NCBI RefSeq assembly: GCF_003752505.1 | Contig: NZ_RKHO01000001.1 | Span: forward strand, 248,001 to 312,000 | Source of the DNA: Nocardioides aurantiacus | GTDB taxonomy: Bacteria; Actinomycetota; Actinomycetes; Propionibacteriales; Nocardioidaceae | Length of the DNA stretch: 64,000 nucleotides | Direction: 5' to 3' | Made by a program: the position numbers and the translations under genes | In this document: positions 22,093 to 28,380 of the stretch, one piece after another | Position numbering within the stretch: the first letter of the stretch is position 1 | Layout of the letters: the number at the start of each line of letters is the position of its first letter | Notes under the pieces: model-generated | The model's input: only the letters and a program-made list of their open reading frames with translations | Told to the model about the DNA's origin: nothing | Databases searched by the model: none

Positions 22093-23076
22093 ATGCCGGC
22101 CCCGCGACGCTCCCCGCACCACCCTGCCCGCCGTCCCGGGCTGCCGGTCGTGGTGCTGCTCGTGGTCGCCCTGCTGGCCGGCTGCGGGGGCGGGACCGAG
22201 GACGCCGCGCCCGTCGAGCGGCGCACGGTCACGCTGGTGGCGCAGAGCACCACCGAGGGCGACGTGCTGACCGCGCTCTACGGGCTGCTCCTCGAGCAGG
22301 CGGGCTACCGGGTCGAGGTGGCCGGTCCCGCGCCGCGCGAGGACTACCTGGAGGCGCTGCGGGAGGGGCGGGCGCAGCTGGCCCCCGACTACGTCTCCGC
22401 CCTGGCCGAGACGCTGCGGGGCGAAGGCACGGCCGGCACCGCCCCGGGAGCCGGTCCGGCGGCCGCCGTGCCCGCTCCGGCGCCCGACGTCGCCCTGGCG
22501 GAGCTCGAGGAGCTGGCGCGCGCGGTCGGCCTGGCGCCCCTGCAGCCGGCCCGCGCCGAGGACGTGCGCTCGTTCGCGGTCACCCGCGCCTTCGCCGAGA
22601 AGCACCGGCTGCGGACGCTGAGCGACCTGGCCCGGTCGGGGCAGCGGGTCGCGCTCGCCGCGGACACCGAGTGCGCCACCCGCGCCGACTGCGCCCGCGG
22701 GCTGCGCGAGGTCTACGGCGTCCGGCTGCGCCGCACCGTGCCGGTGGGCATCGACGGCGGCGACACCCTGGGGCAGCTGCGCGGGGGCGCCGTGCAGCTC
22801 GCGCAGGTCGCCTCGACCGACGGCCGGCTGGCCGGTCCGGACGCCGACGTCGTGGTGCTGGCCGACGACCGCGACCTGCAGCCCTCGCAGCAGGTGGTGC
22901 CGGTCGCGAACGCCGCCTGGGTCGCCGAGCAGCCGGTCGTGCGCACCGTGATGGCCGACCTGGCGCCGGTGCTGACCACCGGGGCGCTGCGCGGACTCGC
23001 CGCCCGGGTCGACGGCGACGCGACGTCGGCCCGCGAGGCCGCCCAGGTCTGGCTCCGCGAGCAGGGCCTGCTCTAG
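22093..23076 (+). CDS. osmoprotectant-type ABC substrate-binding lipoprotein, divergent copy
   Basis: 327-aa lipoprotein. A signal peptide ends in LLAGC (Cys near residue 34). The mature part begins VTLVAQSTTEGDVLTALYGLLLEQAGY, the usual order of the OpuC/OsmX family (normally VGSxNFTE...). The conserved NFTE is degenerate here, and the PEYTGT motif is replaced by APDYVSAL, so ligand contacts probably differ. A Gly/Ala/Pro-rich insert lies at residues ~115-135. It has its own leaderless promoter and no permease directly downstream; it may share the ATPase and permeases encoded at 24770-27356. Convergent with the lyase gene. Confidence 0.7.
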   Translation: MPAPRRSPHHPARRPGLPVVVLLVVALLAGCGGGTEDAAPVERRTVTLVAQSTTEGDVLTALYGLLLEQAGYRVEVAGPAPREDYLEALREGRAQLAPDYVSALAETLRGEGTAGTAPGAGPAAAVPAPAPDVALAELEELARAVGLAPLQPARAEDVRSFAVTRAFAEKHRLRTLSDLARSGQRVALAADTECATRADCARGLREVYGVRLRRTVPVGIDGGDTLGQLRGGAVQLAQVASTDGRLAGPDADVVVLADDRDLQPSQQVVPVANAAWVAEQPVVRTVMADLAPVLTTGALRGLAARVDGDATSAREAAQVWLREQGLL

Positions 23077-23091
23077 CGGGTCGGACGGGCC

Positions 23092-24534
23092 TCAGACCGG
23101 CAGCCGGGCGGCGGGCACCATCGCGGCCAGCCCGCCGACCAGCTCCTCGGCAAGCAGCAGGTCGGAGGTCAGGTCGCGGTCGGCGGTGTCGGCCACGCCA
23201 CCGTCCTGCTCGTCGAGCCACGCCATCGCCCGGGCCAGGGCCGGCGGGTGGGAGTCCTGCATCCGCAGGCACCGCAGCGACGCGACCAGCTCGGCGGCGA
23301 TGACCGCGCGGAAGCGCGACACGGCGTCCAGGGCCTGCCGGGCCGCCAGCGTGGCGAAGCTGGCGTCCTCCTCGACGCCGCGCGAGAGCGTCACGACCTG
23401 GGTGCCGGCGGGGGTGGCGAGCGCCCGGAGCTCGGCCAGCGCCGAGGCCGCGGAGTACTCCACGATCATCACCCCCGAGGCGGCCGGGGTGCCGTCGCCG
23501 AGGAACGGGTGCAGGCCGGTGTACGCCGGCTCGGCCAGCATCGTCAGCCGGGCCAGGCTCAGCTGCGCCGCCTGGGCGAGCGCGAGCACCAGCGCGTCGA
23601 GCGACTGCACGAGGTACGCCGCGTGGAAGCCGCCGTGGTGGGCCACCCCGTGCGACGCGGACACGATCGGGTTCTCCGAGGGGGCGTTGGCCATCGCGGT
23701 CACCACGGTCTCGGCGAACGCCAGCCGGTCCATCAGCGCCCCGTGCACCTGCGGCAGCGTGCGCAGCCCGAAGGGGTCCTGGATCCGGCTCGGCGCGACC
23801 CCGGTGTCGACCAGCTCGCGCACCGTCCGGCAGACCCAGCGCGCGCCGGGGAAGGGCGTGGCGACCTCGACGGCCGGGCTGAACGCCTCGGGGTTGCCGC
23901 GCACCGCCGCGAGGTCCATGGCCGCGACGACGAGCGAGGAGCGGGCCAGCCGGTCCAGGTCGGCGACCGCGAGCGCCGCGTCGGCGAGGACGGCGGCGTT
24001 GCTCGACATGAAGGTGAGCGCGTCGCCGGGCCCGAAGGTGGCGGTGCGGGGCGGCACCGGGACGCTGCGGACCTCGCCCGCGATCACCAGCGCCGTGGTG
24101 GCCAGGGCCGCGAGGTCGGCGGTGCCGACGCTGCCGCCCTCGCGCACGGGCGGCAGCGCGTCGGCGGCGATCATCTCCGCGAGGGCGTCGACCACCTCGG
24201 GCCGGATGCCGTTGCCGTCGGCGGCGAGCTGGTTGAGCCGGATCGTCAGCATCGCCCGGACCCGGGAGGCCGATCGGCGCTCGCCGGAGCTGGTGGCGTG
24301 GGAGCGCAGCAGCCGCAGCGACTGGGCGTCGGGGTCCGGCACCACGACGTCGCGGTTGGCCCCGACCCCCGTCGAGCGGCCGTAGACGGGCCGGGTGGCG
24401 GCCACCTCCTCGGCGTACGCGTGGGAGCGGGCGACCCGGTCGCGGGCGGCCGGGTCCAGCCGCACCGGGTCCGTGCGCCGCGCCGCCGCGACGACGTCCG
24501 CCAGGCTCAGGTGCTCCCCGTCGACGACCGGCAC
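23092..24534 (-). CDS. aromatic amino acid lyase homologue lacking the MIO motif (possible trimethylammonium lyase)
   Basis: 480-aa member of the histidine/phenylalanine ammonia-lyase fold. Family landmarks are PVYGRSTGVGANRD (catalytic Tyr51), RSHATSSGE, RLNQLAADGNGIRP, QDPFGLRTLPQVHGA and NAPSENPIV. Where working ammonia-lyases read GSVGASGDLAPLA, this protein reads GSVGTADLAALA (residues 134-145). The Ala-Ser-Gly that cyclises to the MIO electrophile is gone and one residue is deleted. It is therefore unlikely to release ammonia by the normal route. I recall that ergothionase, which eliminates trimethylamine, is an MIO-free member of this fold. The gene is divergent from a quaternary-amine transporter, which fits such a role. 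GTG 24534 follows GGGAGGGA; the upstream ATG at 24621 lacks a site. Confidence 0.72.
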   Translation of the reverse strand: MPVVDGEHLSLADVVAAARRTDPVRLDPAARDRVARSHAYAEEVAATRPVYGRSTGVGANRDVVVPDPDAQSLRLLRSHATSSGERRSASRVRAMLTIRLNQLAADGNGIRPEVVDALAEMIAADALPPVREGGSVGTADLAALATTALVIAGEVRSVPVPPRTATFGPGDALTFMSSNAAVLADAALAVADLDRLARSSLVVAAMDLAAVRGNPEAFSPAVEVATPFPGARWVCRTVRELVDTGVAPSRIQDPFGLRTLPQVHGALMDRLAFAETVVTAMANAPSENPIVSASHGVAHHGGFHAAYLVQSLDALVLALAQAAQLSLARLTMLAEPAYTGLHPFLGDGTPAASGVMIVEYSAASALAELRALATPAGTQVVTLSRGVEEDASFATLAARQALDAVSRFRAVIAAELVASLRCLRMQDSHPPALARAMAWLDEQDGGVADTADRDLTSDLLLAEELVGGLAAMVPAARLPV

Positions 24535-24670
24535 GACCGACTCCCTCCCGCGCCGGGCACGACCGCCCGGCGCCGCTCCGGGCCCGGCGCGGCTCGCCGT
24601 CGGCCCCCCGCCATCGTCCACCCGATGTCCGCCCCGCGGTCGCCGCCCACCCCGGCTGGGCGGCGTGTCC

Positions 24671-24676
24671 TAGCGT
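24671..24676 (+). promoter_or_regulatory. -10 hexamer TAGCGT for the transporter operon
   Basis: TAGCGT in the divergent lyase-transporter spacer. It would give a leader of roughly 85-90 nt before ATG 24770. Confidence 0.4.
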
Positions 24677-24723
24677 GGAGGGGCGAATCTGCACAACCGG
24701 TGTGTGGAATGCTCGACAGCAAC

Positions 24724-24742
24724 GCCCGGCCGCCGGCCGGGC
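24724..24742 (+). other. stem-loop in the leader of the osmoprotectant transporter operon
   Basis: GCCCGGCC, loop GCC, GGCCGGGC: a perfect 8-bp hairpin about 28 nt upstream of ATG 24770 and 12 nt before the ribosome-binding site ACGGAGG (24754-24760). A post-transcriptional role is conceivable but nothing more can be said. Confidence 0.3.
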
Positions 24743-24769
24743 CCGGACCGTCCACGGAGGACTCCAGAG

Positions 24770-25845
<1,076 letters not shown>

Positions 25846-25849
<4 letters not shown>

Positions 25850-26580
25850 GCACCGCCGCGGCGTACGCCGTGCCGGACCTGGCCGCCCACGTGGTGCAGG
25901 CGGCGAGCTCCTCGCCGTGGGCGTTCTTCTCCTACTTCCTCGACAACCGCGCCCGGACGCTGGACTGGCTGTGGGCCCACACCTGGCTCTCGGTCGTCCC
26001 GGTGCTCGTCGGGCTGGTGCTCGCGCTGCCGCTGGGGTGGCTGGCGCGCCGCTACTCCTTCGTCTACCCGCCGATGATGTCGATCACCGGCGTGCTCTAC
26101 ACCGTGCCCTCGATCGCGCTGTTCGTGCTGATCCCGCCGCTGCTCGGCCTCGACCCGCTCTCGCCGCTGCAGGTGCCGATCGCGCTGAGCCTCTACTCCA
26201 CCGCGCTGCTCGTGCGCGTCGTCGCCGACGGCCTCGCCGCCGTGCCGCAGGAGACCATTCAGGCAGCCACCGCGATCGGGTTCCGGCCGGTCAACCGGTT
26301 CTTCAAGGTCGAGCTGCCGATCGCCGTGCCCGTCATCACCGCCGGGCTGCGCGTGGCCATCGTGGCCAACGTGAGCATCGTGGCGGTCGCGGGCACCATC
26401 GGCATGACCAACCTCGGACTGCTCTTCGACGAGGGCTTCAAGCTCTCGGTCGACACGCCGTACTACCCGCCGATCGTGCTCGGCATCGTGCTCTGCGTGC
26501 TGCTGGCCCTGTTGCTGGACGCGTTCGTGGTGGCCCTCGACCGGGCGCTCACCCCCTGGCGACGGGCGGTCGGACGATGA
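25846..26580 (+). CDS. glycine betaine/quaternary-amine ABC transporter permease, subunit 1
   Basis: 244-aa inner-membrane permease of the ProW/OpuCB type with five to six helices and the EAA-loop segment TIQAATAIGFRPVNRFFKVELPIAVPVI that docks on the ATPase. GTG start in an overlap with the ATPase gene; its own stop overlaps the second permease (ATGA). Two separate permease genes are the usual layout for OpuC-type importers with free lipoprotein receptors. Confidence 0.9.
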
Positions 26581-27356
26581 TCGGCGACACCTTCGGCTGG
26601 CTGACCGACGCCGCCCACTGGCGCAGCACCAACTTCGACACCGGCATCTGGGACCAGCTGCTCGCCCACATCGGCTTCTGCGCGATCGCGCTGGTCGTCG
26701 CGGTCGCGATCGGGCTGCCGCTGGGGCTGTGGATCGGCCACAGCGGCAAGGCCACCTGGCTGGTCACGGTCGTCAACGCGGTGCGGGCGCTGCCCACCGT
26801 CGGCGTGCTCGTGCTGCTGGTCGTGGTGATCGCGCCCAACTTCTACGGCCGCACCAACGCGGGCTACCTCATCCCCACCGAGATCGTGCTGGTGCTGCTC
26901 GCGGTGCCGCCGATCCTGTCCAACGCCTACGCCGGGGTGCAGAACGTCCCGCCGGCCGTGCGTGACGCCGCCTTCGGGATGGGCATGACCGGCCGCCAGG
27001 TGCTGGCCCGGGTCGAGCTGCCCAACGCGCTGCCGCTGATCTTCTCCGGCTTCCGCTCGGCCACGCTGCAGGTGATCGCCACCGCGACCATCGCCTCCTA
27101 CGTCACCCTCGGCGGGCTCGGCCGCTTCATCTACGACGGGCTCGCCCAGCAGGACTACCCCCAGATGATCAGCGGCGGCCTGCTCGTCGCGGCGCTGGCG
27201 CTGACCACCGACCTGCTGCTCGCCCTGGTGCAGCGCTACACCGTCTCCCGCGGCCTGACCGGGCGGCTTCCGCGCGCGGGCCGCGTCCGCACCGAGGGCG
27301 CCGACTCCCGCTCGGCGGTCCTGACCGAGGAGCTCGCCTCCGAGGGCGCGCGCTGA
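26577..27356 (+). CDS. glycine betaine/quaternary-amine ABC transporter permease, subunit 2
   Basis: 259-aa permease paralogous to the preceding gene, with the EAA-loop segment AVRDAAFGMGMTGRQVLARVELPNALPLI. Residues ~220-259 form a charged cytoplasmic tail. ATG 26577 overlaps the upstream stop. A 73-bp gap with a short tandem repeat separates it from the binding-protein gene. Confidence 0.9.
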   Translation: MIGDTFGWLTDAAHWRSTNFDTGIWDQLLAHIGFCAIALVVAVAIGLPLGLWIGHSGKATWLVTVVNAVRALPTVGVLVLLVVVIAPNFYGRTNAGYLIPTEIVLVLLAVPPILSNAYAGVQNVPPAVRDAAFGMGMTGRQVLARVELPNALPLIFSGFRSATLQVIATATIASYVTLGGLGRFIYDGLAQQDYPQMISGGLLVAALALTTDLLLALVQRYTVSRGLTGRLPRAGRVRTEGADSRSAVLTEELASEGAR

Positions 27357-27373
27357 GCGGCGTACGCCCCTCC

Positions 27374-27401
27374 CACGACCCACCACGACCCACCACGACA
27401 C
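27374..27401. repeat. 10-bp tandem repeat (CACGACCCAC, about 2.7 copies)
   Basis: Two perfect copies plus a partial CACGACAC between permease and binding-protein genes; may vary in copy number and alter spacing or stability. Confidence 0.5.
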
Positions 27402-27429
27402 CCGTCACCCGACACAACGGAGAAACCCC

Positions 27430-28380
27430 ATGAAGAACACGCTCGTCGCCATCGCCACGGCGGCCACGCTCAGCCTCGTCGTCGCCGGCTGCGGCTCGGA
27501 CTCCGGCTCCGGCAGCTCCGGCTCCGGCTCGTCCGGCGGCGGCACCATCGCCGAGAACATGGTCTTCGGCGGCCCGCCGGAGTTCAAGACCCGCGCCGAC
27601 GGCATCCCCGGCCTGGAGGAGAACTACGGGGTGAAGTTCGGCAAGTACACCGTCACCGACGTCGGCGGCCCCGTGACCGTCAACGCGCTCAAGCGCGGCC
27701 AGGTCGACGCGGTCGACCTGTTCACCACCGACCCCGCCATCGAGGCCAACGACTTCGTCATCCTCGAGGACCCCAAGAGCAACTTCGCGGCGCAGAACAT
27801 CGTGCCGATCATCAACAAGGACAAGGCCTCCGACGGCGTCACGGAGGTGCTCGACCAGATCTCCGAGGAGCTGAGCACCGACACCCTCGGCGACCTCATC
27901 GGCCAGGTCGCCAACGACAAGGAGAAGCCCGAGGACGTCGCCAAGGCGTGGCTCGCCGACGAGGACCTCGACGCCACCGGCGACTCGGCCTCCGGCGAGA
28001 GCCTGACCGTCGGCTCGGCCAACTTCACCGAGAACGTCATCCTGGCCGAGATCTACGCCCAGGCCCTCGAGGCGCAGGGTGCCGACGTCACGACCAAGCT
28101 CAACATCGGCAGCCGCGAGAAGTACTACCCGGCGCTCGAGCAGGGCTCGCTCGACCTGTTCCCGGAGTACACCGGCACGATCCTCACGTTCATCGACAAG
28201 GAGGCCACGGCCACCAGCCCCGAGGACGTCGCCAAGGCCCTCACCGAGGCGCTGCCCGAGAACCTCGTCGCGCTCGACTACTCCGAGGCCCAGGACAGCG
28301 ACGCCGTCGTGGTGACCGCGGAGACGGCCGAGAAGTTCGACCTCGAGACGATCGCCGACCTGGCCAAGAGCGCCGGCTGA
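27430..28380 (+). CDS. osmoprotectant/quaternary-amine substrate-binding lipoprotein, circularly permuted
   Basis: 316-aa lipoprotein (lipobox VVAGC, Cys21, then a Ser/Gly linker). The family's two halves are in reversed order. Residues 40-176 contain the usually C-terminal half: MVFGGPPEFKTRADGIPGLE, VTVNALKRGQVDAVDLFTTD, and the terminal QVANDKEKPEDVAKAWLAD. Residues 190-316 contain the usually N-terminal half: LTVGSANFTENVILAEIYAQ, KLNIGSREKYYPALEQG, LFPEYTGT, and the end EKFDLETIADLAK. The old termini are joined by an acidic linker (residues 177-190), and the new termini fall where DLAK normally runs into VFG. All motifs are intact, so it should fold and bind. AACGGAG precedes ATG 27430. 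The last gene of the operon. Confidence 0.88.
   Translation: MKNTLVAIATAATLSLVVAGCGSDSGSGSSGSGSSGGGTIAENMVFGGPPEFKTRADGIPGLEENYGVKFGKYTVTDVGGPVTVNALKRGQVDAVDLFTTDPAIEANDFVILEDPKSNFAAQNIVPIINKDKASDGVTEVLDQISEELSTDTLGDLIGQVANDKEKPEDVAKAWLADEDLDATGDSASGESLTVGSANFTENVILAEIYAQALEAQGADVTTKLNIGSREKYYPALEQGSLDLFPEYTGTILTFIDKEATATSPEDVAKALTEALPENLVALDYSEAQDSDAVVVTAETAEKFDLETIADLAKSAG

What the first reader, a model, noticed from the sequence alone, without database searches (positions are those of the whole stretch)
22093..28380. Candidate system for uptake and breakdown of a trimethylated amino acid (ergothioneine/hercynine type)
A quaternary-amine ABC importer (ATPase, two permeases, two receptors) lies back to back with an MIO-free ammonia-lyase homologue across a shared 235-bp promoter region. 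Trimethylhistidine compounds are both ligands for OpuC-like receptors (EgtU importers bind ergothioneine) and substrates for an MIO-free lyase (ergothionase, releasing trimethylamine). The pairing predicts import followed by 1,2-elimination to an acrylate and trimethylamine. The permuted receptor and a second, divergent receptor could broaden or tune ligand range. I have not seen this gene set described.
Basis: inference. Interest (0 to 1): 0.85.

Follow-up and report, generated by a model that had tools for sequence, protein, structure and literature searches.

The report
Importer and lyase for trimethylated histidine
An actinobacterium carries a gene set that looks built to take up a trimethylated form of histidine and split off trimethylamine so that the rest can enter ordinary histidine breakdown; relatives keep these genes beside those for making and degrading the antioxidant ergothioneine.

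Summary
The genes are real and placed as described. A histidase-like PF00221 gene without the MIO tripeptide lies back to back with an OpuC-type importer (ATPase, two permeases, circularly permuted receptor) across 235 bp; a second receptor gene faces the lyase tail to tail. The linkage is conserved: 35 of 55 MIO-free lyase loci have the importer ATPase in the fetched flanks, 15 of 15 in the window's clade, against 0 of 8 MIO-type loci. HutU lies in 16 of 55, an amidohydrolase in 12, a homologue of ergothioneine dioxygenase in 13, EgtA and EgtD in 2. The lyase keeps histidase's substrate-binding residues and lost the cofactor machinery. Best reading: import, then elimination of trimethylamine from hercynine (trimethylhistidine), giving urocanate for the Hut pathway. 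Nothing was tested biochemically. Against it: 12 of 55 loci show none of these neighbours; Hut and ergothioneine genes are absent from the flanks in the window's nearest relatives; and the receptor family is common without any lyase, so the importer's ligand stays open.

The parts
22093..23076 (+). receptor 1 (OpuAC fold, usual order, divergent), convergent with the lyase; accessory at most
   Evidence: Pfam OpuAC 116 bits; best solved match EgtUC 66.6 bits; separate gene in 4 of 55 loci
23092..24534 (-). MIO-free histidase-like lyase; predicted hercynine trimethylamine-lyase
   Evidence: PF00221 333 bits; residue map to HAL; linkage
24115..24126 (-). codons of Gly137-Thr138-Ala139-Asp140 where the Ala-Ser-Gly of MIO enzymes has lost one residue
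   Evidence: alignment; coordinates computed from the GTG start at 24534
24535..24769 (.). shared divergent upstream region, 235 bp; in many relatives it is longer and holds an IclR-type regulator gene
   Evidence: sequence; IclR-type gene in 11 of 55 loci
24770..25849 (+). importer ATPase (OpuC/ProV type)
   Evidence: Pfam ABC_tran; proV 309.5 bits, cut-off 326.6
25846..26580 (+). importer permease 1
   Evidence: BPD_transp_1 63.6 bits
26577..27356 (+). importer permease 2
   Evidence: BPD_transp_1 77.4 bits
27430..28380 (+). receptor 2, circularly permuted OpuAC protein
   Evidence: two swapped stretches against ProX; OpuAC 184 bits; same order in 12 loci, usual order in 19

Best explanation
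An uptake and breakdown module for trimethylated histidine. The OpuC-type importer brings a betaine into the cell. The MIO-free lyase removes trimethylamine from hercynine (N-alpha-trimethylhistidine) by 1,2-elimination, giving urocanate, which HutU and HutI of the same genome can process. Histidase uses MIO to turn a primary amine into a leaving group; a trimethylammonium group already is one, so the cofactor could be lost while the pocket for imidazole and carboxylate stayed. Hercynine would come from outside, or from ergothioneine through the dioxygenase and amidohydrolase homologues encoded elsewhere in this genome. Shown: gene content, loss of MIO residues, retention of pocket residues, conserved linkage, co-occurrence. 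Inferred: substrate, product, direction of flux, ligand of the importer.
For: In 11 of 11 aligned lyases HAL residues Y53, H83, Q277, R283, N313 and E414 are kept, one residue of the Ala-Ser-Gly tripeptide is deleted and N195 is Ser (roles of the HAL residues recalled). Importer ATPase in 35 of 55 loci, HutU in 16, MIO-type HutH in 7; the window's clade 15 of 15 for the ATPase. L087: HutH, importer, lyase, HutU, HutF and HutI all on one strand. L060: a Hut cluster directly beside lyase and importer. L064: EgtA and EgtD over their cut-offs beside dioxygenase, amidohydrolase, lyase, importer, HutH and HutU. The dioxygenase of L064 matches PDB 8qfl-8qfr at 275 bits, entries titled ergothioneine dioxygenase. 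Own genome: dioxygenase and amidohydrolase homologues side by side, EgtD (59), HutH (2), HutU (60), HutI (84). Amidohydrolase present in 16 of 29 lyase genomes and 11 of 365 others.
Against: No activity or binding was tested. 12 of 55 loci have none of importer, HutU or amidohydrolase. Neither HutU nor the amidohydrolase was found in the fetched flanks of the window or of its eight nearest family relatives L040-L047 (0 of 9). The receptor family is in 271 of 394 genomes, and the receptors, 14 of 18 loci without a PF00221 match in the fetched flanks, share the pocket. The lyase model scores nearly the same TM against HAL (0.81) and ergothionase (0.78). Co-occurrence was not corrected for relatedness. 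Tyr280 varies (F 7, Y 3, A 1 of 11), so its change is not a rule of the family.
Confidence: 0.6

Rival explanations
1. The lyase is an ergothionase: it acts on ergothioneine itself, giving thiourocanate and trimethylamine, and the importer takes up ergothioneine.
For: Same fold and also MIO-free (MIO absence in ergothionase: passage in PMC13405746); EgtA and EgtD beside the lyase in 2 of 55 loci.
Against: Histidase is the nearer solved relative; the dioxygenase and amidohydrolase neighbours point to removal of sulphur before the elimination; the HutU of L060 fits urocanate hydratase (895 bits, cut-off 375) and stays below the cut-off of thiourocanate hydratase (650 against 930); receptor 2 lacks the EgtU residues.
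Confidence: 0.17
2. The lyase acts on a betaine of another amino acid (for example of tyrosine or tryptophan), or on another imidazole compound with a good leaving group.
For: Substrate was not tested; the receptor pocket is shared widely; 12 of 55 loci lack the telling neighbours.
Against: H83 and E414, which I recall as the imidazole-holding residues of histidase, are kept in 11 of 11; Hut genes stand nearby in 16 of 55.
Confidence: 0.13
3. The importer is an ordinary osmoprotectant importer and the lyase a neighbour with an unrelated or lost activity.
For: ProX/OpuC-type receptors of this family are common in Actinomycetota (271 of 394 genomes), most listed ones in genomes without a lyase match.
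Against: Pocket residues kept across deep branches; linkage in 35 of 55 loci with more than one gene order; 0 of 8 MIO-type loci linked.
Confidence: 0.1

Closest known systems
Ergothionase (Treponema denticola, PDB 6s7j)
   Same: PF00221 fold, no MIO, predicted release of trimethylamine from a histidine betaine
   Different: 21% identity at Foldseek rank 14, behind histidases; predicted substrate without the thione; found beside Hut genes and an OpuC-type importer
Histidine ammonia-lyase HutH
   Same: Y53, H83, Q277, R283, E414 kept; nearest solved relatives
   Different: MIO tripeptide and N195 lost; below the NCBIfam hutH cut-off, 258 against 539 bits
EgtU ergothioneine importer
   Same: OpuC-type importer with an OpuAC-fold receptor
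   Different: receptor 2 differs from EgtUC at K242, G244, F293, N339, Y341, Y419 and Y443, is encoded by its own gene and is permuted
Oxidative ergothioneine degradation (ergothioneine dioxygenase, PDB 8qfl, plus a hydrolase)
   Same: homologous dioxygenase and an amidohydrolase stand beside the lyase in relatives
   Different: the lyase step after hercynine is, as far as I could search, not described there; pathway recalled, paper not held

Membership tests
Ergothionase | PF00221 fold without the MIO tripeptide | tested here: met
Ergothionase | closer to ergothionase than to histidase | tested here: not met
   phmmer 99.5 bits for 6s7j against 143 and 127 for HALs; profile; Foldseek rank 14, TM 0.78 against 0.81 for HAL
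Ergothionase | catalytic residues of the T. denticola enzyme | not tested
   6s7j alignment never printed and its paper is not held
Ergothionase | turnover of ergothioneine | not testable with these tools
   needs an assay
Histidine ammonia-lyase (HutH) | Ala-Ser-Gly tripeptide that forms MIO | tested here: not met
Histidine ammonia-lyase (HutH) | score above the curated hutH cut-off | tested here: not met
   258 against 539 bits
Histidine ammonia-lyase (HutH) | substrate-binding residues | tested here: met
   Y53, H83, Q277, R283, E414 in 11 of 11; roles recalled
EgtU importer | EgtUC pocket signature (K242, G244, F293, N339, Y341, E375, R379, Y419, Y443) | tested here: not met
   receptor 2 keeps only E375 and R379 of these nine (residues from passages of PMC9732360)
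OpuC/ProX-type quaternary-amine importer | OpuAC receptor with ProV-like ATPase and two BPD permeases | tested here: met
   (proV just below its cut-off)
OpuC/ProX-type quaternary-amine importer | aromatic cage for the quaternary amine | tested here: inconclusive
   two aromatic positions kept (Tyr at 293, Phe at 419), others Asp, Asp, Gln
Oxidative ergothioneine degradation | ergothioneine dioxygenase homologue with the partner amidohydrolase in the same genome | tested here: met
   58% and 52% to the L039 and L037 probes, side by side at 3.74 Mb; not in the window; role of the hydrolase recalled

The most novel reading that the evidence does not exclude
A hercynine trimethylamine-lyase, derived from histidase by loss of its MIO cofactor, joins ergothioneine breakdown to the histidine (Hut) pathway in Actinomycetota, so that cells can take up, desulphurise and fully use ergothioneine or hercynine; in one clade the linked importer's receptor has become circularly permuted.
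Probability: 0.5. Interest if true: 0.75.

Novelty: new variant of a known kind. Interest (0 to 1): 0.62.

Why it matters
It offers a candidate enzyme for the fate of hercynine after oxidative ergothioneine degradation, links ergothioneine turnover to carbon and nitrogen supply through urocanate, and points to a further possible source of trimethylamine in soil bacteria. It gives directly testable substrates for a group of genes that NCBIfam matches only to histidase-related models below their cut-offs.

Tried and rejected
Rejected: that the receptor identifies the ligand. The Asp-x-Asp pocket first looked specific to lyase-linked importers, but of 19 further receptor sequences aligned (18 loci) 12 have Asp-Asp and 5 Asn-Asp at positions 339 and 341; the other two are L127 (Asp-Asn) and a distant second hit in L122. 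14 of these 18 loci show no PF00221 match in the fetched flanks. The family is in 271 of 394 genomes.

Rejected: calling the lyase an ergothionase on MIO loss alone; histidase is the nearer relative, though by TM-score the difference is small.

Led nowhere: three attempts to get the 6s7j alignment printed. The dioxygenase model was poor (mean pLDDT 41.9; TM 0.32 to its hits) and served only to read entry titles, the sequence match being. The lyase model (mean pLDDT 73.9) is weak at 48-83, 134-140, 163-177, 297-303 and 378-389, which hold many mapped active-site positions, so no geometry was read. The amidohydrolase has no solved match at E 0.001.

Counting rules. Dropped before the 55-locus count: L085, L090-L092, L094-L097 (MIO-type motif; used as the 8 controls, which are weak because most come from other families); L024 (contig end); L025 (same gene as L099); partial or unfetched matches such as G062. 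L126 shows a split MIO-free lyase found only after the count. L066 and L067 are from one genome; whether the MAG loci L037-L039 repeat a G genome was not checked. Several loci end close to the lyase (for example L037-L039, L043, L055, L059, L089), so counts are lower bounds. Placement of L093 and other long branches in the tree is unsure.
Full report
Setting. The window is G000 C1:248001-312000 of a 4.06 Mb single-contig genome. The nearest named relative found is Marmoricola sp. Leaf446, with a lyase 99% identical.

Observation. All genes are present at the stated place. The lyase starts with GTG at 24534 behind a purine-rich stretch (my reading) and ends at 23092; the ATPase starts at 24770. 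Receptor 2 matches solved OpuAC receptors in two swapped stretches, so it is circularly permuted. Receptor 1 is a normal but divergent OpuAC protein, tail to tail with the lyase.

The lyase. Pfam PF00221, 333 bits; NCBIfam histidase models match well below their cut-offs. Aligned with P. putida HAL, the Ala-Ser-Gly tripeptide has lost one residue and reads Thr-Ala here and Thr-Gly in most relatives aligned; Asn195 is Ser in 11 of 11; Tyr280 is Phe here (F 7, Y 3, A 1 of 11). Y53, H83, Q277, R283, N313 and E414 are kept in 11 of 11, F329 in 10 of 11. I recall from work on HAL that H83 and E414 hold the imidazole, R283 the carboxylate, Y53 is the base and MIO activates the amine. So the protein keeps a histidine-shaped pocket and lacks the amine-activating part. 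Foldseek ranks HAL mutant Y280F first (TM 0.81) and ergothionase 6s7j at 14 (TM 0.78, 21% identity).

Linkage. Searches of family, class and phylum and of GTDB contigs gave 55 MIO-free loci with fetched flanks (dropped rows under Tried and rejected). In the flanks, at most about 10 kb a side except L099, the importer ATPase (48% identity or more) lies in 35 of 55 loci, HutU in 16, MIO-type HutH in 7, the amidohydrolase in 12, the dioxygenase in 13 (one, in L088, at only 37%), an IclR-type gene in 11, EgtA and EgtD in 2; 12 of 55 have none of importer, HutU or amidohydrolase. In the 15-row clade that holds the window (support 100/99) all 15 have the ATPase. Eight MIO-type lyases from the same searches have no importer match (0 of 8), and neither has the window genome's own HutH locus L098. 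My estimate, not a call: with one HutU per genome of at least 2.5 Mb and a 20 kb stretch, under 0.5 of 55 would be expected by chance.

Results against. Neither HutU nor the amidohydrolase was found in the flanks of the window or of L040-L047, its nearest family relatives (0 of 9). A group of stand-alone lyases in the same family (L051, L054-L059) shows no telling neighbour.

Tree. Six HutH sequences form one side of a fully supported branch, with L093 as a doubtful long branch beside them. Hut linkage appears in seven separate places on the tree: L060/L061, L064/L073, L052/L099, L053, family f20 (L065, L066, L068-L071, L081), L087 and L088; these may be one old association or several. Gene orders differ: L060 has HutH, HutU, HutF, HutI, then the convergent lyase and the importer; L087 has HutH, ATPase, two permeases, receptor, lyase, an amidohydrolase of the allantoate type, HutU, HutF and HutI on one strand.

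Ergothioneine context. In L064 EgtA (430 bits, cut-off 371) and EgtD (378, cut-off 291) stand beside the dioxygenase, amidohydrolase, LacI-type regulator, lyase, importer, HutH and HutU. The L064 dioxygenase matches PDB 8qfl-8qfr at 275 bits, which one search lists under the title ergothioneine dioxygenase from Thermocatellispora tengchongensis. I recall, without a held paper, that this enzyme makes ergothioneine sulphinic acid and that a metal-dependent hydrolase then gives hercynine and sulphite; the PF04909 amidohydrolase next to it would fit that role. Amidohydrolase and lyase co-occur: 16 of 29 lyase genomes against 11 of 365 others in 394 (odds ratio 40, Fisher p 5e-14; G229 dropped from the 30 hits as MIO-type); relatedness is not corrected for.

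Own genome. Dioxygenase and amidohydrolase homologues are adjacent at 3.74 Mb; EgtD at 2.31 Mb, HutH and HutU at 3.66 Mb, HutI at 3.65 Mb. So the whole route could run in this cell, though its genes are scattered.

The importer. Mapped on EgtUC (residues from passages of PMC9732360), receptor 2 has Ala, Phe, Tyr, Asp, Asp, Phe, Gln at 242, 244, 293, 339, 341, 419, 443; this is neither the EgtU nor the A. fulgidus ProX cage. The genome's paralogue L100 keeps the more usual residues. But receptors of the same family away from any lyase look much the same, and the family is in 271 of 394 genomes. The importer is thus a common actinobacterial type that stands next to this lyase again and again; sequence does not tell its ligand. 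The permuted order was seen in 12 loci, all in the window's clade, the usual order in 19, which fits one permutation in that clade; L037-L039 could not be read.

Mechanism. Hercynine to urocanate and trimethylamine, then Hut enzymes. Direct action on ergothioneine stays possible. A five-step ergothioneine catabolism is known (Beliaeva 2021, seen only as a reference line), and NCBIfam holds thiourocanate hydratase models; the HutU of L060 fits urocanate hydratase instead (895 bits, cut-off 375; thiourocanate hydratase 650, cut-off 930).

Literature. Ten library searches were made; those bearing on hercynine breakdown list no hercynine lyase. Passages of PMC13405746 and PMC7653990 name ergothionase acting on ergothioneine. 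Most subscription papers are not held, so an earlier description cannot be excluded.

Verdict. Observation confirmed; interpretation supported in its core (import of a trimethylhistidine-type betaine, then elimination of trimethylamine) and corrected in detail (hercynine preferred, receptor uninformative). Confidence 0.6.

Noticed in passing
L052:13476-14942, L099:9283-10764, L088:12388-13827, L116:13089-14537, L120:5248-6723, L110:11128-12414: A second kind of PF00221 lyase that also lacks the MIO serine (Ala at 143) and has Arg for His83 and Val for Tyr280; in L052, L099, L110 and L120 an ornithine-cyclodeaminase-like gene is adjacent, and in L110, L116 and L120 the same OpuC-type importer family. 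Substrate unknown.
   Followed up: partly
window 27430-28380; L040-L047, L060-L062: Circularly permuted OpuAC receptor in 12 loci of one clade; the same importer has the usual order in 19 other loci.
   Followed up: partly
L051, L054-L059: Stand-alone MIO-free lyases with GTGDLVPL motifs and no importer, HutU or amidohydrolase in the fetched flanks.
   Followed up: no
L050:10601-13056: MIO-free lyase followed by two flavin-dependent monooxygenase genes of the NtaA/DmoA and alkanesulfonate types, which hints at sulphur scavenging.
   Followed up: no
L048:10683-13432: Divergent MIO-free lyase beside a polar-amino-acid type importer (SBP_bac_3 receptor, ATPase, permease) instead of the OpuC type.
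   Followed up: no
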